Source: Streptomyces sp. NBC_00775
Lineage (GTDB): Bacteria > Actinomycetota > Actinomycetes > Streptomycetales > Streptomycetaceae
Length of the DNA: 64,000 nucleotides
Direction: 5' to 3'
Assembly: GCF_036347135.1 (NCBI RefSeq)
Contig: NZ_CP108938.1
Location: 372,001-436,000 of the forward strand
This document shows, piece after piece, positions 2,792 to 15,548 of this stretch (within the stretch, counting starts at the first letter, position 1; each line of letters starts with the position of its first letter). Below the pieces are notes generated by a model. It did not search any database. It was given only the letters and a program-made list of their open reading frames with translations, and had not been told where the DNA came from. The translations under genes were made by a program, and so were the position numbers.

Positions 2792-2879
2792 CCGAGAGCG
2801 CCCGCCCGGCTGTCCTCCTCGCCGCGGCCCCCGCTTGTCAGCCGTGCACAGCGGAGAACGCCGGCACCTTGCCGGCTAG

Positions 2880-2896
2880 GAGCGTGGGTCAGTAAC
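2880..2896 (+). repeat. IS1182 left inverted repeat, outer part
   Basis: GAGCGTGGGTCAGTAAC. It pairs with the reverse complement of 7586-7602 at 15 of 17 positions. The remaining inner part of the repeat (CGGCAAC) lies 3 kb away at 5912-5918 because another element has inserted after the GTAAC. Confidence 0.9.
2892..2896 (+). repeat. GTAAC target duplication, left copy
   Basis: Five bases GTAAC abut the left end of the nested unit; the second copy is 5907-5911. Confidence 0.85.
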
Positions 2897-2923
2897 TGTG
2901 ACTGAGCACGCTGGTTGGCCACT
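2897..2923 (+). repeat. Left 27-bp inverted repeat of the nested transposon
   Basis: Perfect inverted copy of 5880-5906. Inside it a second inverted repeat, GCCACTGAGCGCC (2918-2930) with GGCGCTCAGTGGC (2946-2958), can form a subterminal hairpin, and GTTGGCCAYT is repeated in direct orientation at 2914-2922 and 2934-2942, possible transposase-binding sites. Confidence 0.9.
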
Positions 2924-3015
2924 GAGCGCCGTAGTTGGCCATTCCGGCGCTCAGTGGCAAAGAGCACCTGAGCCGGGACACGATAGGTGGAACCTGGCCA
3001 GGCATGTTGGAACTA

Positions 3016-3864
3016 CTAGAGACGTGTCGCAGTCCGGACAAGGTCGGCGACTGCTCTGGACCGGCTGTGTGGGGGCCAGGCAATGACGGTGGTAACTGCT
3101 GGCGCGTCCAGCACGGGCACGGCGGCGAGGTCATCGTGCAGCTGGGCTCGGCACGACTCCGGTGCGACCGCGCACGCGCGGCCGAGCGCGACGAGCTGCA
3201 GCAACTGTGCTTGGTCGCGGACTTGTGGGCCGGGGCCGGGCGGGTAGGTGCCGTCGGAGTCGGGCCAGAGTGGCAGGGGCAGGCCAGGCAGGGCGGTGAT
3301 GTCGGCCATGTGCACATGGGCGCGGACGGTGAGCGGGTGCCCGGCCGGCAGGACCACAACCTGGCCCTCCGTGCTGAGTTCTTCGGTGTGGAACCCGGCT
3401 GTCGAGTCGAACGGCCGGTGCAGCAGCGCCACGTCGGCCCGGCCCTCGCGCAGGAGTCGTTGCTGCTCGGCAGGGCCGCACAGGATGACGTCGACGGGGA
3501 CCGCGCCGGGTTCGGCGGCGTACGCGTCGAGCAGTTTGGCCAGCAGTTCTCTGGACGCGCTGGCCTTCGTGACCAGGGCCAGGCCGGGACGGCCGGTCGC
3601 GGAAAGGCCTGCGCGGCGGGTCCGGCGCTCGGCGGCGTCGACCGCGTCGAGGGCCGCCCGGCCCTCGGCCAACAGCACCGAGCCGGCCGCGGTCAGCGTG
3701 ACGGCGCGGCTGGTCCGATCCAGCAGTGCTGCCCCGAGCCGGCGTTCGAGCTGCTGGATCGCCCGTGACAGAGGCGGCTGCGCGATCCCGAGCCGCTGCG
3801 CGGCCCGCCCGAAGTGCAGCTCCTCAGCGACAGCGACGAAATATCGCAGTTCCCGGGTCTCCAT
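3016..3864 (-). CDS. LysR-family transcriptional regulator (transposon cargo)
   Basis: A 282-residue protein from ATG 3864. Residues 1-60 form the LysR winged helix-turn-helix (METRELRYFVAVAEELHFG, then AAQRLGIAQPPLSRAIQQLE), followed by the linker helix and a periplasmic-binding-protein-like effector domain. Length is normal. It is divergent from an SDR gene with 95 bp between, the usual LysR arrangement, so it probably controls that gene and itself. A dyad ATACC-CTGAC-GGTAT (3887-3901) lies between them. The C-terminus is 120 bp from the left end of the nested transposon. Its helix-turn-helix resembles that of the host LysR at 7603-8511. The effector is unknown. Confidence 0.93.
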   Translation of the reverse strand: METRELRYFVAVAEELHFGRAAQRLGIAQPPLSRAIQQLERRLGAALLDRTSRAVTLTAAGSVLLAEGRAALDAVDAAERRTRRAGLSATGRPGLALVTKASASRELLAKLLDAYAAEPGAVPVDVILCGPAEQQRLLREGRADVALLHRPFDSTAGFHTEELSTEGQVVVLPAGHPLTVRAHVHMADITALPGLPLPLWPDSDGTYPPGPGPQVRDQAQLLQLVALGRACAVAPESCRAQLHDDLAAVPVLDAPAVTTVIAWPPHSRSRAVADLVRTATRL

Positions 3865-3886
3865 GCCGCCACGGTACTCCGGATCA

Positions 3887-3901
3887 ATACCCTGACGGTA
3901 T
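3887..3901. promoter_or_regulatory. Probable LysR operator between the LysR and SDR genes
   Basis: ATACC-CTGAC-GGTAT is a perfect 5-bp dyad with a 5-bp centre, resembling the T-N11-A LysR box, placed in the 95-bp divergent spacer. Confidence 0.5.
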
Positions 3902-3959
3902 CGCTGCCTACCCGATCGGTCTTGGACCCCCGCCGGGGTCCGAGAGCAGCATGGTCCCC

Positions 3960-4691
3960 ATGAGCGAACGAACGATTGCGCTGGTCACCGGCGCGAACAA
4001 GGGAATCGGCTACGAGATCGCCATGGGCCTGGGCGCCCTCGGCTGGAGCGTCGGCGTCGGCGCCCGAGACGATCAGCGCCGTGAGGCAGCGGTGGAGCAA
4101 CTGCGCGCGGCCGGCGTCGACGCGTTCGGCGTACCGCTGGACGTGACCGACGACGCGAGCGCCACCGCCGCCGCACAGCTGATCGAGGAACAGGCGGGGC
4201 GCCTCGACGTGCTCGTCAACAACGCCGCCATCACCGGCGGCATGCCACAGGAGCCCACCCGGGTCGATCCCGCCACCATCCGGACGGTCGTGGAGACCAA
4301 CGTGATCGGCGTCATCCGCGTCACCAACGCGATGATGCCGCTGCTGCGCCGCTCTGCCTCACCGCGGATCGTGAACATGTCCAGCAGTGTCGGCTCCCTC
4401 ACCCGGCAGTCAGGAACCGCTGCTGAGCAGATGACGGGTCCGGTGGCCGTGGCGTACGCGCCGTCGAAGACGTTCCTGAACGCCGTCACCCTCCAGTACG
4501 CCCGGGAGCTGCGCGGCACGAACATCCTGATCAATGCCGGCTGCCCCGGCTATGTCGCGACCGACCTCAACGGCTTCCGCGGCGTGCGTACCCCCGAACA
4601 GGGCGCAGCGATCGCCATCAAACTGGCGACCCTGCCGGACGACGGCCCGACCGGCAGGTTCTTCCAAGACGCTGGCGTAGTCCCCTGGTGA
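3960..4691 (+). CDS. Short-chain dehydrogenase/reductase (transposon cargo)
   Basis: A 243-residue classical SDR from ATG 3960; an in-frame ATG lies at 3951. The NAD(P)-binding motif is TGANKGIGYEIA near residue 10, the NNAAITGG structural motif follows at about residue 86, and the catalytic Ser (NMSSSVGSL) and Y-x-x-x-K (VAYAPSKTF) are all present. It is cytosolic and acts on an unknown alcohol or carbonyl. It is divergently paired with the LysR gene. Its 3' end faces the RidA gene across about 210 bp. The GANKGIG motif is of the type found in carbonyl-reductase-like SDRs (family knowledge). Confidence 0.92.
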   Translation: MSERTIALVTGANKGIGYEIAMGLGALGWSVGVGARDDQRREAAVEQLRAAGVDAFGVPLDVTDDASATAAAQLIEEQAGRLDVLVNNAAITGGMPQEPTRVDPATIRTVVETNVIGVIRVTNAMMPLLRRSASPRIVNMSSSVGSLTRQSGTAAEQMTGPVAVAYAPSKTFLNAVTLQYARELRGTNILINAGCPGYVATDLNGFRGVRTPEQGAAIAIKLATLPDDGPTGRFFQDAGVVPW

Positions 4692-4903
4692 TGTGCACGG
4701 CGGTCATCAGCCGCCGGGTGAGGCAGCTTCGCCCGCGCGTCTCGAACCGGTATATCGACGCGGGTTCCAACATGAATGGCAATTCACCGCAGGTTGCAAG
4801 CAGTGTGACTATGTGGTTCCAACAAGCGTGACCTGCGGGGTCCGAATCGCAAGGTCACCACACCCTCATGGTTCCAACTACCGCGTCCCGTCACAGCACC
4901 TGT
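4692..4903. other. Convergent spacer with three GGTTCCAAC copies
   Basis: No coding frame is supported. GGTTCCAAC occurs at 4763, 4815 and 4870 (spacing 52 and 55), and GTGACCT/AGGTCAC forms an inverted repeat at about 4829-4858. Purpose unknown; a terminator or protein-binding region between the convergent SDR and RidA genes is possible. Confidence 0.4.
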
Positions 4904-5311
4904 TCAGTCGAGGACCGCGGTGGCTTCGATCTCGACCAGATGGTCGGGGACGTCCAGTGCCGCAACGCCTATCAGCGTGGTCGGCGGGGCCGGGGTGACC
5001 CCCAGCTTCGCGGCTGCCCGGGAGATCCCTTCCAGGAGCGGGGGCATCTTGTCGGGGGTCCAGTCGACGACGTAGAAGGTCAGCTTCGCCACGTCGTCGA
5101 AGGAGCCACCGACCTCGGCCAGGGCGGTGCCGACGTTGAGATAGCTCTGCTCGACCTGGGCGGCGAGGTCGCCTTCGCCGATCGTGACTCCCTCGGCGTC
5201 CCAGGCGACCTGCCCGGCGATAAAGACCAGCCTCGACCCGGATGCGATCGACACCTGCCGGTAGACGTCGATCTTGGGCAATCCGCTGGGGTTCACAAAG
5301 GTGATGGCCAT
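4904..5311 (-). CDS. RidA (YjgF/YER057c/UK114) family protein (transposon cargo)
   Basis: A 135-residue protein from ATG 5311, preceded by a GAGGAGA ribosome-binding site. The Rid fold is recognisable from FIAGQVAWDAEG, the central QVEQSYLNVGTALAEVGGS helix and the terminal LVEIEATAVL. In archetypal RidA a conserved Arg sits in P-A-R-S/T-x-V before this last strand and binds the imine carboxylate; here the region reads PAPPTTLIGVAALD, so that Arg is absent. It is therefore unlikely to be a classical enamine/imine deaminase and belongs to a divergent Rid subgroup. It is divergent from the HxlR regulator, which probably controls it. Confidence 0.88.
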   Translation of the reverse strand: MAITFVNPSGLPKIDVYRQVSIASGSRLVFIAGQVAWDAEGVTIGEGDLAAQVEQSYLNVGTALAEVGGSFDDVAKLTFYVVDWTPDKMPPLLEGISRAAAKLGVTPAPPTTLIGVAALDVPDHLVEIEATAVLD

Positions 5312-5371
5312 GCTGCCTGTCTCCTCGTCCTGAGCGCCTGTGGGCTCGCGTCCGCGCCGACCGAGACGCTT

Positions 5372-5406
5372 ACTCTCTTGTGGTTACTCAGAAACTGTAA
5401 GAGAGT
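5372..5406. promoter_or_regulatory. Probable HxlR operator between the RidA and HxlR genes
   Basis: ACTCTCTT (5372-5379) and AAGAGAGT (5399-5406) are a perfect 8-bp inverted repeat. Between them a second dyad, TTAC with GTAA, is nested around GGTTACTCAGAAACTGTAA. HxlR proteins bind such dyads; position between the divergent genes supports the role. Confidence 0.5.
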
Positions 5407-5452
5407 GGACGCTGACGTGGAAGAACGCACTTTTCAGTGACTGGAGAACCTT

Positions 5453-5833
5453 ATGGTGACCAAGCAGTTCACAGGCTCGCCCGAGGATGCAGACCTGGCG
5501 CGTGCGGGCTCCTTGGCGCGGGAGATCTTCTCCGACGTCGCCAACAAGTGGGCGTTCCTCATCGTCGAGGGTCTCGGTGATCGCACCCTGCGCTTCAGCG
5601 AGCTGCGGAACGAGATCGAGGGCATCAGCCACAAGATGCTCACCCAGAACCTGCGCATGCTGGAGCGCAACGGCCTGGTCGAGCGCACCGTGCACCCCAC
5701 CGTCCCACCGCGGGTCGAATACACCCTCACCGAGCCGGGTCAAGCCCTGCGCGCAACGGTCGACGGAATGTGCGGCTGGACCCACCAGTACTTCGGTCAC
5801 ATCGAGGCCGCCCGCCGCCGCTTCGACGCCTGA
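5453..5833 (+). CDS. HxlR-family transcriptional regulator (transposon cargo)
   Basis: A 126-residue winged-helix protein from ATG 5453 after a GGAGA site. It has the HxlR core: VANKWAFLIVEGLGDRTLRFSEL cut as VANKWAFLIVEGL and RTLRFSELRNEIEGISHK, then MLTQNLRMLERNGLVERTV and the wing PPRVEYTLTEPGQAL. Members often respond to electrophiles or small metabolites and repress the divergent gene, here ridA-like. It ends 46 bp before the right inverted repeat of the nested transposon. Confidence 0.93.
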   Translation: MVTKQFTGSPEDADLARAGSLAREIFSDVANKWAFLIVEGLGDRTLRFSELRNEIEGISHKMLTQNLRMLERNGLVERTVHPTVPPRVEYTLTEPGQALRATVDGMCGWTHQYFGHIEAARRRFDA

Positions 5834-5879
5834 CAGCTGGCGCACGCGTCGCCGTGGGCCGGCCAGCTGCAATGCTCAG

Positions 5880-5906
5880 AGTGGCCAACCAGCGTGCTCA
5901 GTCACA
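5880..5906 (-). repeat. Right 27-bp inverted repeat of the nested transposon
   Basis: Reverse complement of 2897-2923 without a mismatch. Immediately inside lies a related direct repeat: GGCCAGCTGCAATGCTCAGA (5861-5880) and GGCCAACCAGCGTGCTCAGT (5883-5902), spaced 22 bp, as expected of multiple transposase-binding sites. Confidence 0.9.
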
Positions 5907-5911: not shown

Positions 5912-5959
5912 CGGCAACCCGCGCGTGTCTGGTGATCACTTGTGCGGGATGATCCCGGT

Positions 5960-7459
5960 ATGCGTGATCAGGAGGGGCTGTTCGAGGTCGAGCCGGCCGA
6001 GGGCAAACAGCCGCCACGTTGTGCGGCGGCGGTGGATAAAACGTTCCGGGCGTTCGACCCGCACCAGATCCTGCTGCTGCCGCCGTCGCTGGATGCCTGG
6101 CTGCCCGAGGATCATCTGGCCCGGTTCGTCGCCGACCTGGTCGACGAGGTGCTCGACCTCTCACCGATCCTCGCGGAGTACACCGAAAAGCGCGGCTTCC
6201 CGCCCTACGACCCGCGGCTGATGCTGCGGCTGCTGATCTACGGCTACACCACCGGGGTCCGCTCCTCCCGGGCGATCGAGCGTCGTTGCGTGGACGATGT
6301 CGCGTTCCGCTTCCTGGCCGCCGACCAGGCTCCGGACTTCCGGTCGATCGCCCGATTCCGCCGCCGCCACCTGGACACCCTCGGCAGCCTGTTCCTCCAG
6401 TCGCTGCACCTCGCGCAGAAGCTCGGCATGGTCAAGATGGGCCGCGTCGCCCTGGACGGCACGAAACTGGAGGCCAACGCCTCCAAACACAAGGCGATGA
6501 GCTACGGCCGCCTGGTCGACAAGGAGGAGCGGATCGAGGCCGAGATTGCCGAACTGGAGGCCAAGGCCGCCGCTCTGCTGGCCGACGCTGAGGCCACCGA
6601 CGCCGCCGAGGACCAGGCCTTCGGCGTCGGCGGCAAAGAGACCGACCTGCCCGCCGAGCTGGGCCGACGCGAGAAGCGCCTCGCCAGGCTGCAGGCCGCC
6701 CGCGCGCAGATCGAGGCCGAGGCCGCTGCGAAGGCACGCCGCCACGCGCAGGAGAAGGAACGCCGCCGCCAGGACCGCACCGGCACCAGCGACGATCAGG
6801 CTGTCACCGACGCGGGCGACAAGGCTGCCGCCAAGGCCCGGCCCAAGCCCAAGGCCCAGGCCAACTTCACCGACCCAGGCTCGCGGATCATGAAGAACAG
6901 CGACGGCGCCTACATCCAGGCCTACAACGCCCAGGCCGTCGTCGACGAGGCCCACCAGGTCATCACCGCCGCCGACGTGACGACCAACGCCTCCGACGCG
7001 CTGAACTACACCAGCATGCTCGACCAGTCCGCCGTCAACACCGGCGCCCACCCCAAGCAAGCCCTGGTCGACGCCGGCTACTGCTCCGAGGCGAACCTCG
7101 AAGCCGCGAAGGAACGCCAACTGGCCTGCGGAACCGACACGTTCATGGCCACCGGCCGCCTCGGCCACGACGAACAGGTCCCGCCCGCACCCCGCGGACG
7201 CATCCCCAAAGACGCAACCTTGAAGGAGCGCATGGCCCGCAAGCTGCGGACCAAGCCCGGCCGGGCCGCCTACCGCCGCCGCAAGGCCATCGTCGAACCC
7301 GTCTTCGGCCAGATCGTGACCTGCCAGAACGGCCGCCAGCTACTCCTGCGCGGCGAGGACAGTGCCCGCAGCGAGTGGCAGCTGCTGGCCGCCTGCCACA
7401 ATTTCCGCAAGATCTTCCGACACGCCGGATCGGCCGGTCTCACCGCGGCAATCGCCTGA
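5960..7459 (+). CDS. IS1182-family DDE transposase
   Basis: About 499 residues from ATG 5960 (in-frame GTG 5942 also possible). The N-terminal half has the IS1182 domain (LPPSLDAWLPEDHLARFVADL, read here as LPPSLDAWLPEDH and LARFVADLVDE; then YDPRLMLRLLIYGY). The catalytic region contains VALDGTKLEANASKH, DPGSRIMKN, ALVDAGYCSEANL and the C-terminal RRKAIVEPVFGQI with the last acidic residue. A long Ala/Glu/Lys-rich coiled coil (residues about 180-280) interrupts the fold, usual for this family. The frame looks intact. Its upstream region is only 48 bp because the nested unit separates it from the outer end of the IS, so its native promoter may be displaced. Confidence 0.93.
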   Translation: MRDQEGLFEVEPAEGKQPPRCAAAVDKTFRAFDPHQILLLPPSLDAWLPEDHLARFVADLVDEVLDLSPILAEYTEKRGFPPYDPRLMLRLLIYGYTTGVRSSRAIERRCVDDVAFRFLAADQAPDFRSIARFRRRHLDTLGSLFLQSLHLAQKLGMVKMGRVALDGTKLEANASKHKAMSYGRLVDKEERIEAEIAELEAKAAALLADAEATDAAEDQAFGVGGKETDLPAELGRREKRLARLQAARAQIEAEAAAKARRHAQEKERRRQDRTGTSDDQAVTDAGDKAAAKARPKPKAQANFTDPGSRIMKNSDGAYIQAYNAQAVVDEAHQVITAADVTTNASDALNYTSMLDQSAVNTGAHPKQALVDAGYCSEANLEAAKERQLACGTDTFMATGRLGHDEQVPPAPRGRIPKDATLKERMARKLRTKPGRAAYRRRKAIVEPVFGQIVTCQNGRQLLLRGEDSARSEWQLLAACHNFRKIFRHAGSAGLTAAIA

Positions 7460-7578
7460 CCGGCCCGGCCGTCAGCCCCTGTCCAGTCGATTCCCGAACC
7501 GGAAGGACCAGCCACCGCCGCCGCGGGACACCGGCCGGGCGACCGCGAGCGATCCCAGCGATCACGACCACCCGGTCA

Positions 7579-7602
7579 GTTGCCCGTTACTGAGACACGC
7601 TC
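7579..7602 (-). repeat. IS1182 right inverted repeat
   Basis: Read on the minus strand it begins GAGCGTGTCTCAGTAAC and continues GGGCAAC. It matches the left end only if the nested unit 2897-5906 and one GTAAC copy are removed. Confidence 0.9.
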
Positions 7603-8511
7603 CTAGGGCCTCTTCGGCGGATCTTGGCTGACCGTCGCCAGAAGGCTTGCGGCCAGGGGGCTTGGGTCGTTCTCGCGCCAGGCGACGGCGACTCGGGTGC
7701 GGGCGGTGCTGGGCTCGATCCCGCGGAAGGCGATGCCCTTGAGGCGGATGCGCCGGATGCTCGCCGGGGCGAGGGAGACGCCCAGGCCGGTTTCCACCAG
7801 GGCGCAGACGGTCTGCCACTCCACGGCATGCTGGGCCACCCGGGGCGTGAAGCCCGACGCGGTGCACAAGCCGACGATCTGGTCGTGCAGCCGCGGGCCG
7901 ACATGACGGGGCAGCAGCACAAAGGGCGAGTCCGCCAACTGCCCTACCCGGATGGTCCGCTGGGCCGCGAGCGGATGCGCGGAGGGCAGCACGGCCACGA
8001 AGGGCTCAGTGAGTACGGTCTTGAAGCCGAGCTGTGTTTCGTCGGCGGGCGGCTCGCGCAGCAGGCCGATGTCGATGGTCTTGTCGTGCAGGGCCGCGAG
8101 TTGCGGTGCGGTGGTCATCTCGTGGATGTCCAGGTGCACGGCGGGGAACCGCTCCCGGAAGGTGCGCAACACGCCGGGCAGGACGGTCAGGGCGAGGGAG
8201 GCGGCGAAGCCGATCCGCAAACGGCCGGCCCGGCCGCTGCCCATGTCCCGGGCCGCGGCGAGGCCGTCCGCGAGGTCGGCGAGGGCTCGCCGGGCCGCGG
8301 GCAGCAGTTCCCGGCCCGCCGGGGTGAGGGTGACGCGTCCCGGTTCGCGATGGAACAGCGGGTGGCCGACCTTGTCCTCCAGGCGGCGGATCTGCTGGCT
8401 CAGGGGCGGTTGTGCGATGCCCAGAAGGGCGGCCGCGTGGCCGAAGTGGAGTTCCTCGGCGAGCACGATGAAGGCGTGCAGCTGCTGCAGGGGAAGTTCG
8501 GGGCGCTCCAT
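7603..8511 (-). CDS. LysR-family transcriptional regulator
   Basis: A 302-residue LysR protein from ATG 8511: helix-turn-helix HAFIVLAEELHFGHAA and LLGIAQPPLSQQIRRLE in residues 10-45, then the effector domain. Its TAG stop (reverse complement of 7603-7605) lies within the CTAG flanking the IS1182 element, so the element inserted exactly at the stop codon and the duplicated CTAG preserved it; the protein appears full length. It is divergent from a RidA-like gene with 72 bp between and probably regulates it. The helix-turn-helix is similar to that of the LysR inside the nested transposon. Confidence 0.93.
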   Translation of the reverse strand: MERPELPLQQLHAFIVLAEELHFGHAAALLGIAQPPLSQQIRRLEDKVGHPLFHREPGRVTLTPAGRELLPAARRALADLADGLAAARDMGSGRAGRLRIGFAASLALTVLPGVLRTFRERFPAVHLDIHEMTTAPQLAALHDKTIDIGLLREPPADETQLGFKTVLTEPFVAVLPSAHPLAAQRTIRVGQLADSPFVLLPRHVGPRLHDQIVGLCTASGFTPRVAQHAVEWQTVCALVETGLGVSLAPASIRRIRLKGIAFRGIEPSTARTRVAVAWRENDPSPLAASLLATVSQDPPKRP

Positions 8512-8583
8512 ACGCCTAGAGATATCAGGTCATGCCTGTTGCGGTATTAGACGTATCCGCGCTGGTTGCTTAGCGTTCCGCGC

Positions 8584-8973
8584 ATGACGGAGCGACGTGC
8601 GATCCTCAGCGGCTCGACGTTCGAGGAGCAGATCGGCTATGCCCGTGCCGTGGTCGACGGCGACTGGGTTCACGTGTCCGGGACGACCGGTTTCGACTAC
8701 GCCACCATGACCATCTCCGACGACGTGGTGGAGCAGACCGCGCAGTGCCTGCGCAATATCGAGGCCGCGCTGGCCGAGGCGAAGTGCGGCTTCGCCGATG
8801 TCGTGCGGGTGCGGTATCTGCTGCCCGACCGCGAGGACTTCGAGCCCTGCTGGCCGGTCCTGCGCCGGTGTTTCGGCGAGGTCCGGCCGGCCGCGACGAT
8901 GCTGATGTGCGAACTTTTCGATCCCCGTATGAAGATCGAGATCGAGGTGTACGCGCGACGGGCCACCGCGTAA
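8584..8973 (+). CDS. RidA-family protein
   Basis: A 129-residue Rid-fold protein from ATG 8584: WVHVSGTTGFDYATM, the QCLRNIEAALAEAKCGFADVV helix (about residues 55-75), and terminal KIEIEVYARR. The Arg of archetypal RidA before the last strand is absent (VRPAATMLMCELFD), as in the non-deaminase Rid subgroups. It is the divergent partner of the LysR gene at 7603-8511. It is not a close duplicate of the RidA-like protein carried by the transposon: the two differ throughout apart from the fold motifs. Confidence 0.88.
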   Translation: MTERRAILSGSTFEEQIGYARAVVDGDWVHVSGTTGFDYATMTISDDVVEQTAQCLRNIEAALAEAKCGFADVVRVRYLLPDREDFEPCWPVLRRCFGEVRPAATMLMCELFDPRMKIEIEVYARRATA

Positions 8974-9093
8974 CAGGCTGCGCGAACGGGCCGGCGGGCG
9001 GGGGTGTCGTGCCCGGGGGCGACTACCTGGTGGAACACCCCGAGTTCATGGCAGCGTGAGCCTCTCCCCGAAACGCCGATGGAGGGATCCGCC

Positions 9094-9771
9094 GTGTCCG
9101 AGCTCGACAGCCAGACCGCCTACTGGGACGCCGCCGCGGCGACGAAGCGGTTCACGCACCCGCTGCACACACCGTGGCTGGACGGCGTGGGCCCAAGCGC
9201 CGCGATCCTCGACTACGGCTGCGGGTACGGACGAACCCTCGAAGAGCTGGAACGGCAGGGCTTCGGCAATCTCTCCGGCGTCGATACATCGTCAGGGATG
9301 ATCACCCGGGCCCGCGGCCTGCACCCCGCGATGCGCTTCGCGGTGCTGGACACCCCGCCGACACTGGCCTGGGCGGACGCGAGCGCCGACATGGTCGTGC
9401 TCTTCGCGGTGCTGACCTGCATCCCCAGCGACGAAGCCCAGCGGCGCCTGATCGGCGAGCTGCACCGCGTACTCAAGCCCGGCGCACTGCTGTACCTCAG
9501 CGACCTGCCGCTTCAAGACGACCGGCGCAACCGCGAGCGCTACGCGCGATTCGCCGAACAGTACGGCACCTACGGGGTGTTCGAGACCAGCGACGGCGCG
9601 GTCTGCCGCCACCACGCGACCGACTGGTTCACCTCCCTGCTCGCCGCATTCGAGACGGTCGACACCCGACGGACCACCGTGAACACCATGAACGGCCATG
9701 AATCGGCGGGGCTGCAGATCCTGGCCCGCAAGGCGGCCTCAAGTCACCAGGCTCCTCCCCGCCGAAAATGA
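9094..9771 (+). CDS. Class I SAM-dependent methyltransferase
   Basis: About 225 residues from GTG 9094, chosen because GGAGGG (9081-9086) lies 7 bases upstream; an in-frame ATG at 9079 is the alternative. Motif I is ILDYGCGYGRTLEELE (residues about 35-50), with the acidic GVDTS at the end of strand 2 and the post-motif MVVLFAVLTCIP region, followed by HRVLKPGALLYLSDL. It would use S-adenosylmethionine on an unknown small molecule. It is followed after 36 bp by a second unrelated methyltransferase gene and may be co-transcribed with it. Confidence 0.88.
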   Translation: MSELDSQTAYWDAAAATKRFTHPLHTPWLDGVGPSAAILDYGCGYGRTLEELERQGFGNLSGVDTSSGMITRARGLHPAMRFAVLDTPPTLAWADASADMVVLFAVLTCIPSDEAQRRLIGELHRVLKPGALLYLSDLPLQDDRRNRERYARFAEQYGTYGVFETSDGAVCRHHATDWFTSLLAAFETVDTRRTTVNTMNGHESAGLQILARKAASSHQAPPRRK

Positions 9772-9807
9772 GATGCGCGCACCGACCGGCGCTGCCAGGC
9801 TGCGCCG

Positions 9808-10545
9808 GTGAATCATGAACAGATGTCCAAGCTCGCTCACGCCGACCACCCGATCAAGTCGCCCGTCGACGACGACTCCGTACGCCGGCTTCTGGAACGC
9901 GGCCTGCCGCCCGGCAGCAAGCGTGTACTCGACCTTGGTTGCGGCAGCGGGGAATGGCTTCTGCGCGCGCTCGCCACAGACCCTCAGCTGTACGCCGAGG
10001 GCGTCGACGTCTCCGAGGGCTCCCTGGCGGACGCACGCCAGGCCGCGATCCGCCTCGGCGTCGAGGAGCGCCTCGTACTCCACCACCAGGAAGCCGAAGG
10101 CTTCACCTCCCCGCACCCGTTCGACCTGGTGCTCAGCGTCGGGGCCACGCACGCCTTCGGCGGCCTGCTGCCCACTCTCGCGGCGGCACGCACTCATCTG
10201 GCACCCGGGGGACGCGTACTGATCGGTGACGGCTTCTGGGACCGCGAGCCCTCCCCCGAAGCCATCGAGATGCTCGGGGACTACTCCGACCTGGCGACCA
10301 CGGTGGACCGTGTCGTCGCCGACGGATGGACTCCTGTCCACGGCCATGTCAGCACCCGCGGCGAGCTGGACGCCTACGAGTGGGCCTGCTGGGGCTCGCT
10401 CGCCTCATGGGCCCTGGATCACCCTGCCGACCCGGACAGCTCTCAGGTACTTGAGGCAGCGACCACCCGGCGCTCGGAATGGCTACGCGTCTACCGCGAC
10501 ACCTGGGGCTTCGTCAGCCTGATCCTGCGTCAAACATCTGACTGA
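9808..10545 (+). CDS. Class I SAM-dependent methyltransferase
   Basis: A 245-residue protein from GTG 9808 (ATG 9823 also in frame). Motif I is VLDLGCGSGEWLLRAL at about residue 40; GVDVSEGSLADARQ is the acidic strand-2 loop; then DLVLSVGATHAFGG and LAPGGRVLIGDGFWDREP. The HAFGG and GDGFW elements are common in actinobacterial methyltransferases of unknown substrate. Two Trp-rich stretches (ALDHPADPDSSQ, WLRVYRDTWGFVSLIL) close the domain. Probably in one unit with the preceding methyltransferase. Confidence 0.88.
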   Translation: MNHEQMSKLAHADHPIKSPVDDDSVRRLLERGLPPGSKRVLDLGCGSGEWLLRALATDPQLYAEGVDVSEGSLADARQAAIRLGVEERLVLHHQEAEGFTSPHPFDLVLSVGATHAFGGLLPTLAAARTHLAPGGRVLIGDGFWDREPSPEAIEMLGDYSDLATTVDRVVADGWTPVHGHVSTRGELDAYEWACWGSLASWALDHPADPDSSQVLEAATTRRSEWLRVYRDTWGFVSLILRQTSD

Positions 10546-10703
10546 CAGGCGAAGTTGCCTTCGCGGTGGTGCGTGGGCGATGTAGTGGGTCGCGTCGGTC
10601 TGCCGGGCGCCGGTGAGACGCGGGGCAGACCCGGGAAGGCCCGCCCGGCGAGCGGAGTGTGGATCCACGCGTCGGGCGGGCCGAGTTCCCGGTGCCGCGT
10701 CGC

Positions 10704-11564
10704 TCAGCCGATGACGCGGTCGGCGTCGGCCGGCGGGCGCGGTGCCGGGTGGCGTCCCGTTCGCTTGGCGGCGAGACCTGCCGCCCAGGACGGTGCGACC
10801 CCGATTTCCAGCGCCCGGGACAGGGCCCGCGAGTGGAGTCGCCCCTCCAGCAGCTGAAGGGTGGCCAGTGCCGCGGCACCAGCACGGCCGCGACGAGCAA
10901 CGGCACCGCGCCGCGCCGCGCGGGAGGACGGCCACGGCGAGCACGAGACACAGCGCGCAGACTCCGACGGCGAAGCCGTAGACGCCGAGCGGCGCGCCGT
11001 CCCGGTGCAAAGGCAGACGCCTGAGGCCGCACACGACGAGCGCGGCGGCCGTGAGCCACCGCGGCCAGTCCGGGAGCGTGGTGGTCCTCGCCGGGTCGCG
11101 CTCATCCCGTTCCCGGGCCTGCCGTGCGGCACGGTCGTGAGGCGTGCTGCGGTCCCGCCCTGCTGCCGGCCGCGGCGTCGGACCGACGGCCTCCCCGGGC
11201 AGCGGCGCCCTGGTGTGCGGGGCCCGATCGGGAGTTCCCGCCCCGGAGTGCCTGTGGCGGCGTGCCGCTCGGACAACTGGCCGATGAGCCGCACGAGTTC
11301 CTCGACGGGCCGGCGTGCGGCGACCGTCCGGACGGCCTCCTCCGCGCAGTGCGATGCGACCGAAGGCTGGTGCAGCAGCGGCATCACCCGGGTGACGTCC
11401 TCGACGGGGCGTGACTCCGCCGCCGAGCGGATCGCCTCGTCCGCGCTGTCGGGGCTGCGGGGCGAACTCGCCAGCCGCACTTCTTCCAGTGGCCGATCAG
11501 CGACGGCTGCGTGCACGAGACTGTGGCACCCCGCCACTCGGACGGGGCATCGGTGTGAAGCCAC
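10704..11564 (-). pseudogene. Putative small membrane protein gene broken by several frameshifts
   Basis: Coding character moves between minus-strand frames. The 5' part holds three repeats of the type R-P-x-E-E-V/L-x-R-L (DRPLEEVRLA, RPVEDVTRVMPLL, RPVEELVRLIGQL). Near 11230 the frame switches to one reading TLPDWPRWLTAAALVVCGL and a hydrophobic segment GFAVGVCALCLVLAVAVLP. A third frame gives PLLVAAVLVP (about 10880-10905), and the original frame returns as ALATLQLLEGRLHSRALSRAL. The whole resembles a Streptomyces protein with helical repeats followed by two or three membrane helices. At least three frameshifts imply a pseudogene, unless they are sequencing errors. Confidence 0.55.
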
Positions 11565-11688
11565 CTCACTCGCTCAGGAGCCCACAGCGAGCGGCGCTCG
11601 GGTCGTGAGCGAACGGCGGGAGGGTGCCGGGCTTCTTGTAGGGCAGAGCACCGGCACCCTCGTGCCTGTCAGTCGACGGCGCCTGCGG

Positions 11689-14229
<2,541 letters not shown>

Positions 14230-14481
14230 GTCGTGGCTCCATGCGGGTGGGGTGAAGAGCAGAGCGAACACAACGCGTTCGGAACAGAGGGGTCAGCTCC
14301 GTTCCCCTTGACGCCTGGGGGTGAACCGGCTTCCCGTGGCGCTTAGTTCACGGTTTGATTTAAGTAATGAGCCATCAAGGGGGCAAGCCCTCTGACGCGA
14401 TTTTCTTCACCTCGTACGCGCTGCGGCGCCGCGCTGATATCGGGATGCGAAGGGGCCCGGGAGAGTGTCACAGTCACTGTC
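14230..14481. other. Divergent intergenic region
   Basis: About 250 bp between the divergent beta-helix gene and a hypothetical gene. An AT-richer stretch TTTGATTTAAGTAATGAGCC (14354-14373) could hold promoter elements, but no clear -35/-10 pair or operator is seen. Confidence 0.3.
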
Positions 14482-14979
14482 GTGACCTTGATGGACGTGC
14501 TCGTCGACTTCGCCCGCACTGGCCGGATCGGGCCCCTGAACTGCGGAATGTCCCTGGCTGAGGCTGAAGACCTCCTCGGCCCGGGCCGCCCGCACCCCGC
14601 CCACATCCTCAAAGGGCCCGACATCGACGGCTACCCGTACTCCTGGAACGGGCTGCGGCTATCGGTCACTCAGCGGGCCGTCAGCGGAATCTGGATCAGC
14701 CTCTGGCCCGGTTCGACCGCCAGCCTTCCGCCGCTCGTCCTGCCCGATTCCGAGTCATGCGACGCCACCGTCCTCCGCGAGGAGCTGATCGCCGCCCTGG
14801 ACGCCGCAGGCTGCCGGCATGCGGTCAACAGCACCCTCACCTTCGGCGAGCAGTCCAGCCTGATCACCCAACCCGCCGACGTCTGCGCGGTCTTCAGCCT
14901 GCCGGGACGGGACAACCACGTGCCGCACCGTGATCGGCACTACCTCGACGTGATGCACAAGCACACGGTTGGTGCATAA
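14482..14979 (+). CDS. Hypothetical protein
   Basis: About 165 residues from GTG 14482, or 162 from ATG 14491; neither start has a clear ribosome-binding site. The sequence is soluble, with a conserved-looking N-terminus GPLNCGMSLAEAEDLLGPGRP and DGYPYSWNGLRLSVTQ, a pattern seen in small Streptomyces proteins of unknown function that often occur near secreted or toxin-related loci. It has no signal peptide and no membrane segment. Codon use matches neighbours. No function can be assigned. Confidence 0.7.
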   Translation: MTLMDVLVDFARTGRIGPLNCGMSLAEAEDLLGPGRPHPAHILKGPDIDGYPYSWNGLRLSVTQRAVSGIWISLWPGSTASLPPLVLPDSESCDATVLREELIAALDAAGCRHAVNSTLTFGEQSSLITQPADVCAVFSLPGRDNHVPHRDRHYLDVMHKHTVGA

Positions 14980-15050
14980 GCTCGGTACGTGGGTCGCCGT
15001 GGGCATGGATGTGCTCCTGTGGTGCACAGGCCGATTCCTTGGGGGTTGCC

Positions 15051-15548
15051 TTGATCGACTCCAGCCGTCGACACCGTCCGTACATCGCGGTGGCCGGGCC
15101 GGGCGAGGCGACCGCCCGGGAGACAGAGCTGGCCCGGCAGGTCGGCGGACTGCTGGCGCAGCGTGGTGCGGTCGTCGTGTGCGGGGGGCTCGGCGGTGTC
15201 ATGGAGGCCTGTGCCGAGGGCGCCGGCGCGGCGGGCGGCACCGTGGTCGGCGTACTGCCCGGCGGAGACCGAACCGCCGCCAACCCGTACCTGACCGTCG
15301 CCCTGGCGACCGGTCTGGGCGAACTGCGCAACGGCGTCCTGGTGAATACCTGCGATGCCCTCATCGCGGTGGGAGGCAGTTGGGGAACGCTCAGTGAGGT
15401 GGCGCTGGCACTGCACGCAGGCAAGCCGGTTGCCGCGCTGCGCAGTTGGACTCCGCCGGCTGAGGCCGCTGCTTCTGGGCAGGCCGGACTGCTGGTCGAG
15501 GTCTCGACGCCCGCCGAGGCCGTCGACAACGTACTGTCGCGTCGTTGA
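15051..15548 (+). CDS. TIGR00725/LOG-like nucleotide-binding protein
   Basis: About 165 residues from TTG 15051, which has a GGGGG run at good spacing; ATG 15009 is an in-frame alternative. A Rossmann-like core is visible: YIAVAGPGEATARE, VVVCGGLGGVMEACAEGA, GTVVGVLPGG and IAVGGSWGTLSEVALAL, the variant of the LOG motif P-G-G-x-G-T-x-x-E found in the molybdenum-cofactor-carrier-like TIGR00725 family. It probably binds a nucleotide or cofactor; enzymatic role unknown. Its stop codon spans the junction of a 20-bp tandem duplication. Confidence 0.8.
   Translation: MIDSSRRHRPYIAVAGPGEATARETELARQVGGLLAQRGAVVVCGGLGGVMEACAEGAGAAGGTVVGVLPGGDRTAANPYLTVALATGLGELRNGVLVNTCDALIAVGGSWGTLSEVALALHAGKPVAALRSWTPPAEAAASGQAGLLVEVSTPAEAVDNVLSRR

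What the first reader, a model, noticed from the sequence alone, without database searches (positions are those of the whole stretch)
2897..5906. Passenger-only transposon carrying two divergent regulator/enzyme pairs
Seen directly: perfect 27-bp inverted ends, TGT...ACA termini, a 5-bp GTAAC duplication, and restoration of the IS1182 terminal repeat when the unit is removed. Inside are only LysR/SDR and RidA/HxlR; no transposase. A 3-kb non-autonomous element that moves two self-contained regulatory modules would be an unusual kind of mobile metabolic cassette. Its mobilising transposase must lie elsewhere.
Basis: partly seen in the sequence, partly recalled or inferred. Interest (0 to 1): 0.78.

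Follow-up and report, generated by a model that had tools for sequence, protein, structure and literature searches.

The report
Nested transposase-less Tn7-like gene cassettes
A Streptomyces genome carries a small gene cassette inserted inside another cassette, which sits inside an ordinary insertion sequence; the cassettes have Tn7-type transposon ends but no transposase of their own, and related cassettes with other cargo genes occur in other Streptomyces.

Summary
But the 3,010-bp unit is two nested insertions: a 1,078-bp RidA/HxlR element (two more copies in this genome) invaded by a 1,927-bp LysR/SDR element with its own GCACC duplication. Removing the latter leaves exactly 1,078 bp, matching the other copies without gaps. 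The ends are Tn7-like. A Streptomyces element, L144 (7.9 kb, GCCAC duplication), encodes TnsA-TnsB-TnsC-TniQ; one of its ends matches the window right end at 38 of 48 bases (best of 12 shuffles 28), its other end no better than chance. The RidA/HxlR element also sits outside IS1182 with other duplications in Streptomyces sp. MMG1533 (TTTGA) and in a genome of another family (CGATG). Of 13 elements with perfect 5-bp duplications, 9 have no tns gene and carry varied cargo (EF-Tu, Barstar, patatin, WD40, RidA/HxlR), 1 keeps a TnsA remnant and 3 have full Tns sets. No cognate Tns set was found in this genome; its three copies all ride in IS1182 units flanked by CTAG. Searches found no held paper on transposase-less Tn7-like cassettes. 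Mobilisation in trans is inferred, not shown.

The parts
2876..2879 (.). CTAG, left flank of the IS1182 unit (repeated at 7603-7606)
2880..2896 (+). outer 17 bp of the IS1182 left inverted repeat, ending in GTAAC (2892-2896)
   Evidence: empty relatives
2897..5906 (.). Outer Tn7-like passenger element: RidA/HxlR element (1,078 bp without its insertion, 3,010 bp with it)
2897..2923 (+). 27-bp terminal inverted repeat, left end; second TTGGCCA repeat at 2935-2941
2964..2968 (.). GCACC, left copy of the inner element's 5-bp target duplication (right copy 4896-4900)
2969..4895 (.). Inner Tn7-like passenger element (LysR/SDR), 1,927 bp, begins TGAGCC and ends GTCACA, subterminal TTGGAAC repeats
3016..3864 (-). 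LysR-family regulator, 282 aa
   Evidence: PF00126, PF03466
3963..4691 (+). SDR oxidoreductase, 242 aa
   Evidence: PF00106
4870..4895 (-). right end of the inner element, TGTGACGGGACGCGGTAGTTGGAACC read inward
4904..5311 (-). RidA/L-PSP family enzyme, 135 aa; its stop lies 3 bp from the inner element's right target copy
   Evidence: PF01042
5372..5406 (.). palindrome-like block between RidA and HxlR, candidate HxlR operator (inferred)
   Evidence: alignment of 9 copies; three copies differ in the arms
5453..5833 (+). HxlR-family regulator, 126 aa
   Evidence: PF01638
5880..5906 (-). 27-bp terminal inverted repeat, right end; the terminal 48 bp are 38/48 identical to the TnsA-side end of the TnsABC-TniQ element L144
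5907..5911 (.). GTAAC, right copy of the outer element's target duplication
5942..7459 (+). IS1182 family transposase
7586..7602 (-). IS1182 right inverted repeat, followed by CTAG 7603-7606

Best explanation
The reported unit is a Russian doll. A 1,078-bp passenger-only element (divergent RidA/HxlR genes between Tn7-type ends) inserted 17 bp inside the left repeat of an IS1182 element, duplicating GTAAC. A second passenger-only Tn7-like element (divergent LysR/SDR genes, ends with a different repeat core) later inserted into the window copy, duplicating GCACC. Such elements would be moved in trans by TnsA-TnsB-TnsC-TniQ of related Tn7-like transposons of Streptomyces such as L144. In this genome no cognate Tns set was found, and the interrupted IS1182 now appears to carry the cargo as part of itself (a transporter IS). 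Shown by sequence: nesting, ends, duplications, other copies at other sites, other cargo, and an element with Tns genes and a matching end. Inferred: mobilisation in trans by Tns proteins, movement of the IS1182 unit by its own transposase, and a detoxification role of the cargo.
For: Removing the inner element and one GCACC leaves 1,078 bp with 25 mismatches and no gaps against the other copies, which are identical to each other and carry RidA/HxlR only. The same cargo and ends occur with other duplications: TTTGA and no IS1182 match in Streptomyces sp. MMG1533, and CGATG in G525, a genome of another family (L178). By one nearest-partner rule over the loci scanned, 12 of 20 independent inward-facing end pairs have a perfect 5-bp duplication, where chance gives about 1 in 1,000 each. 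L144 has TnsA (NF033179, 140.3 bits, cutoff 110), TniB and TniQ and a TnsB matching solved TnsB (8rdu, 7svw; 7.2e-8) between ends with GCCAC on both sides; one end matches the window right end 38/48, against at most 28/48 in 12 shuffles. L167, with such ends and a TCGGC duplication, keeps a TnsA remnant. All three IS1182 units of this genome carry the element, each with CTAG on both sides; two are identical over 2,795 bp.
Against: No transposase-bearing element with identical ends was found. L144's better end matches 21/27 of the terminal repeat; its other end matches 19/27 and 26/48, and the window's left 48 bp match L144 at best 27/48, all no better than shuffles. L065 and L147 match 22-23/27 at both ends but have TTGTCAC for TTGGCCA. 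No transposase was found for the inner TTGGAAC ends. The only TnsB found in this genome is 30% identical to that of L144. 8 of 20 nearest-partner pairs lack a perfect duplication, and 12 of 24 genomes looked at show an end without a detected partner. In G040 the passenger is 98.4% identical to the window's but the IS1182 around it only 85%, so passenger and IS did not simply travel together there: either a second insertion at the same place or recombination. Nothing was tested at the bench.
Confidence: 0.85

Rival explanations
1. One 3-kb transposon that moves both regulator/enzyme pairs together.
For: Both pairs lie between the 27-bp ends in the window.
Against: Two copies in the same genome carry RidA/HxlR only; the LysR/SDR part has its own ends and GCACC duplication and its removal restores the length of the other copies; LysR/SDR with a similar right end occurs elsewhere without RidA/HxlR (L172).
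Confidence: 0.04
2. The ends belong to another transposase family with TGT...ACA termini, such as IS481 or IS21, and the likeness to Tn7-like ends is convergence.
For: IS481 and IS21 members have such termini (recalled); one element (L071) holds an IS481 transposase inside the ends and another (L058) an IS5-like one.
Against: The IS481 of L071 has its own inverted repeats at 5840-5875 / 6869-6904. Complete Tns sets lie inside three elements with such ends and perfect duplications (L144, L065, L147).
Confidence: 0.07
3. In this lineage the element does not move by itself; IS1182 transposition, or recombination between IS1182 copies or between passengers, made the copies, and the ends are relics.
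For: All three copies in this genome lie at one IS1182 position; no cognate Tns was found; in G040 the same position of a diverged IS1182 (85%) holds a 98.4% identical passenger, which recombination could explain.
Against: True perhaps of this genome's copies, but not of the element: it lies outside IS1182 with TTTGA in MMG1533 and CGATG in G525, and the GTAAC duplication records at least one insertion into IS1182.
Confidence: 0.1

Closest known systems
Tn7-like transposons of Actinobacteria (TnsABC-TniQ), as surveyed by PMC8649781
   Same: TGT...ACA ends, 5-bp duplications (recalled for Tn7), subterminal repeats; L144, L065 and L147 encode the proteins between such ends
   Different: The window elements encode no Tns protein and carry one regulator/enzyme pair each. 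That survey scanned outward from tnsB (section 6), so it would not see elements without tnsB. Whether L144 falls in its Actinobacteria-dominated second clade was not tested.
Mobile insertion cassette (MIC), as mentioned in ISsaga, PMC3129680
   Same: IS-related object without its own transposase that a cognate transposase elsewhere can activate (passage)
   Different: The cognate machinery here looks like a multi-protein Tn7-like transposon, not a simple IS
Transporter IS (IS with passenger genes), PMC3129680
   Same: IS1182 with passenger genes between one terminal repeat and its transposase, present at three sites
   Different: The passengers were brought in by another transposon, which cuts the left repeat after 17 bp
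Laboratory mini-Tn7
   Same: Tn7 ends with cargo, transposition proteins supplied in trans (recalled)
   Different: Natural, of another Tns lineage, with other end sequences

Membership tests
Tn7-like transposon (by its ends) | TGT...ACA termini with 5-bp target duplication | tested here: met
   outer element GTAAC; inner element GCACC, with one TGA and one TGT terminus; 12 of 20 independent nearest-partner pairs of the outer type
Tn7-like transposon (by its ends) | arrays of ~20-bp repeats at both ends | tested here: met
   by eye, without a statistic: two TTGGCCA-type repeats at the outer left end, one plus a weaker one at the outer right end, TTGGAAC-type repeats at both inner ends
Tn7-like transposon (autonomous) | encodes TnsA, TnsB, TnsC and TniQ | tested here: not met
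   no hit in the window by tblastn with the L144 proteins; so it is a non-autonomous derivative at most
Tn7-like transposon (by its ends) | related element with the same ends and the machinery | tested here: inconclusive
   L144: one end 38/48, the other no better than shuffles; L065 and L147: 22-23/27 at both ends with a different repeat core. Similar, not identical
Tn7-like transposon (by its ends) | TnsB binds and pairs these ends | not testable with these tools
   needs biochemistry
Transporter IS (IS1182) | IS transposase and outer repeats, passenger genes inside, several copies with own target duplications | tested here: met
   three units with CTAG on both sides and different flanks
Transporter IS (IS1182) | moves as a unit | not testable with these tools
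   inferred from two identical 2,795-bp units at different sites
IS481 or IS21 derivative | these ends bound an IS481 or IS21 transposase as its own termini | tested here: not met
   the one IS481 seen has its own repeats; only part of the elements' proteins were scanned

The most novel reading that the evidence does not exclude
Streptomyces hold a pool of interchangeable, transposase-less Tn7-like gene cassettes, each with one or two genes and often its own regulator, that are captured, moved in trans by several Tns lineages with distinct end codes, stacked in tandem or nested, passed to other families and handed on to insertion sequences: a cassette economy comparable in effect to integrons but built on Tn7-like transposition.
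Probability: 0.35. Interest if true: 0.78.

Novelty: new variant of a known kind. Interest (0 to 1): 0.63.

Why it matters
The survey of Tn7-like cargo that I read in part (PMC8649781) starts from the transposase gene, so passenger-only elements are invisible to it. In this sample they are the majority: of 8 pairs with perfect duplications found by the end pattern in other genomes, 7 have no tns gene (though the pattern came from a passenger end, which may bias this). If general, the cargo moved by Tn7-like systems is underestimated, and single housekeeping-type genes such as EF-Tu become mobile. The end sequences give a direct way to find such elements, and the L144 proteins a direct way to test mobilisation.

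Tried and rejected
IS21 family as source of the ends: my first guess from the subterminal repeats; among the proteins scanned none inside these ends was an IS21 transposase. L077 as the autonomous partner: rejected, because close relatives of its tns cluster (92.7-95.1% identical, L083-L085) share homology that begins 82 bp inside the end, so it is a separate Tn7-like element next to or inside one with such ends. The own-genome TnsB (C1:147404-149287) as partner: rejected, 30% to L144 TnsB, and no like end was found near it in the right orientation. IS481 of L071: rejected. An 8-bp duplication for the inner element (AGCACCTG): replaced by the 5-bp GCACC, the other letters matching by chance. 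A common target site for passenger-only elements: flanks of 17 elements were compared; among those without tns genes only the IS1182-borne copies shared flanks clearly; L144 and L167 share 68% over 196 bp close to their left ends, and L065 and L147 share flanks. In one search the right boundary of L073 was set 24 bases short; corrected it still has no perfect duplication (GCGTT / GCG TG read as one word). Papers on transposase-less Tn7-like elements: searches; listings only were seen (one search listed 20 of 92, searches listed 20 of 21), apart from passages of PMC3129680, PMC10293859, PMC10969869 and PMC8649781, and section 6 of the last. A search for HxlR with RidA in Streptomyces gave no paper.
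Full report
Observation. The window holds a perfect 27-bp inverted repeat at 2897-2923 and 5880-5906, with TGT...ACA termini and a GTAAC duplication. Two matches were found at up to three mismatches, none in 100 shuffles. The unit lies 17 bp inside the left repeat of an IS1182 element bounded by CTAG. Two IS1182 relatives on Streptomyces plasmids, about 85% identical, have the uninterrupted repeat with one GTAAC and CTAG on both sides. The cargo genes are LysR, SDR, RidA and HxlR by Pfam.

The unit is two elements. This genome (G000, 11.1 Mb, one contig) has three pairs of the ends: six exact matches, none for the reversed control pattern. The other two pairs bound a 1,078-bp element with RidA/HxlR only; the two are identical and sit in the same IS1182 position with GTAAC. 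The window copy equals this element plus an insertion. Between GCACC (2964-2968) and GCACC (4896-4900) lies a 1,927-bp element that starts TGAGCC and ends GTCACA. Removing it and one GCACC gives 1,078 bp, with 25 mismatches and no gap against L007. The inner element occurs once in full in this genome. A relative in G065 (L172; 90.5% over 1,771 bp and 88.6% over 132 bp) keeps a similar right end but not the left, and RidA/HxlR were not found with it. The right-end pattern of the inner element was found in 5 of 392 genomes of the genus at up to 3 mismatches, own genome included. One further pair of this end type (L170, G094) holds divergent TetR and nitroreductase genes and an IS110-type transposase. 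By my reading it lies inside the end of another Tn7-like element, with TTACT/TTGCT around it, one base different.

Other copies of the outer ends. The 25-bp end at up to 3 mismatches occurs in 26 of 392 genomes of the genus, own genome included, with no control hit. In 394 genomes of the class it occurs in 6; by my count of the rows, 5 of 40 of the same genus and 1 of 354 of other genera, with one control hit. A scan of named species genomes with an exact degenerate pattern gave 9 stretches, 8 in Streptomyces and 1 in an Actinoallomurus MAG; contig lengths shared with G146, G220 and G367 show that the genus is Streptomyces. I fetched larger stretches for 24 of the 25 other genomes; G054, whose match looked poor, was left out. 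In these 24, 8 genomes have an inward-facing pair with a perfect 5-bp duplication (L057, L058, L060, L065, L070, L071, L076, L080), 4 have a pair without one (L068, L069, L073, L077), and 12 show no partner by my criteria.

Pairs by one rule. Taking for each inward end the nearest partner 250-20,000 bp away, at up to 8 mismatches, and counting repeated copies once, 12 of 20 pairs have a perfect 5-bp duplication: the IS1182-borne RidA/HxlR copy, L057, L058, L060, L065, L070, L071, L076, L147, L167, L168 and L178. The misses are L068, L069, L077, two in L144, two in L146 and L152. One of the L144 misses is a false pairing: by my reading a further small element with a NUDIX gene (7332-8118, GACAC on both sides) is nested inside L144. 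The wider L144 pair, 7268-15192, has GCCAC on both sides. That makes 13 elements with perfect duplications.

Cargo of the 13. RidA/HxlR at three independent sites: IS1182 (GTAAC), MMG1533 (L168, TTTGA) and G525 of another family (L178, CGATG; RidA 90% and HxlR 88% identical). EF-Tu alone in L060 and L070 (92% identical protein). Barstar alone in L057; a 203-aa protein without a Pfam match in L076; WD40 with an IS5-like transposase in L058; patatin, a metallo-beta-lactamase-fold protein and an IS481 in L071. L167 has a 456-aa protein without a NCBIfam match at 1e-10 and a TnsA remnant. L144, L065 and L147 have full Tns sets. So 9 of 13 show no tns gene by tblastn with the L144 proteins; two of these 9 (L058, L071) hold another transposase gene.

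The machinery. Its TnsA-side end matches the window right end at 38 of 48 bases, against at most 28 in 12 mononucleotide shuffles of L144. Its other end matches at 26 of 48 and 19 of 27, and the window's left 48 bp find at best 27 of 48 in L144; these are within the shuffles. L065 and L147 match 22-23 of 27 at both ends, but with TTGTCAC in place of TTGGCCA. More distant TnsB relatives (L135, L139) have TGTGACCGAG ends with TTGGCAC or TTGGCGG. So end type may follow the TnsB lineage, on few cases: the strict end pattern was found in only 6 of 30 TnsB loci. L167 looks like a step between full and passenger-only elements.

Movement in this genome. One TnsB-like protein was found, at C1:147404-149287, 30% identical to L144 TnsB, so no cognate machinery is evident. 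IS1182 has three full copies, all with the element, each with CTAG on both sides and different flanks; two units of 2,795 bp are identical. I infer that the interrupted IS1182 moved as a unit. Other Streptomyces share the GTAAC junction: L078 with a full IS1182 (85%) and CTAG on both sides but only one passenger end detected; L166 and L080 with 88 and 42 bp of the IS; L163 with the left repeat only. In L078 the passenger is 98.4% but the IS 85% identical to the window's, so repeated insertion at this place or recombination must be considered.

Cargo function. The RidA-HxlR gap keeps a palindrome-like block across 9 copies, three of which differ in its arms. RidA/HxlR pairs 79-84% identical occur on four Streptomyces plasmids; the matches stop before the element's ends (one of the four was opened), so the module looks like an ordinary gene pair that was captured. 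That HxlR controls RidA, and that the pair handles reactive metabolites, is inference from the families.

Novelty. MICs and transporter ISs are known kinds (PMC3129680, passages). The survey PMC8649781 scanned up to 125 kb either side of tnsB (section 6), and says of its second clade, dominated by Actinobacteria, that none had been characterised experimentally (passage). Searches of the held library showed no account of transposase-less Tn7-like cassettes in the titles and abstracts listed; most subscription journals are missing from it. I rate this a new variant of a known kind.

Noticed in passing
window 7603-8973: A second divergent LysR / RidA-family pair lies directly beyond the right end of the IS1182 unit; it is not part of the unit.
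   Followed up: no
L060 13948-15572 and L070 1899-3549: Passenger-only elements whose single gene is a full EF-Tu (L060 718.9 bits against TIGR00485; L070 protein 92% identical), each with its own 5-bp duplication.
   Followed up: partly
L178 411-1525 (G525, another family): The RidA/HxlR element with CGATG on both sides in a genome outside Streptomyces, suggesting transfer between families.
   Followed up: partly
L078 1696-4443 (G040): A diverged IS1182 (85%) holds a 98.4% identical passenger at the same GTAAC junction; both its repeats read GGGTC like the window's left repeat, while the window's right repeat differs. The window's left repeat may have come from such an IS by recombination.
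   Followed up: partly
L144 7332-8118: A small NUDIX gene element with TTGTCG-type ends and GACAC on both sides, by my reading, nested inside the TnsABC-TniQ element.
   Followed up: partly
L057 15437-16028: A 592-bp passenger-only element with one Barstar-family gene and GCAGC duplication.
   Followed up: no
L060/L061 and L144 15192-15198: Elements abut end to end with the 5-bp target copy between them; in L144 the neighbour is a decayed copy with TnsA fragments.
   Followed up: partly
L145 83-1196 and similar loci L134, L137, L139, L141: A Tns lineage with TTGGCAC-type ends sits just upstream of argC (argC confirmed for L145 only, TIGR01850; the others by likeness of sequence), suggesting a fixed target site.
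   Followed up: partly
L065 and L147: Two related TnsABC-TniQ elements lie beside homologous flanks in two genomes (86% over 405 bp), another likely fixed target; L065 carries type I restriction genes.
   Followed up: no
one search hit list: Several TnsB homologues lie within about 50 kb of the ends of single-contig genomes, possibly near chromosome ends.
   Followed up: no
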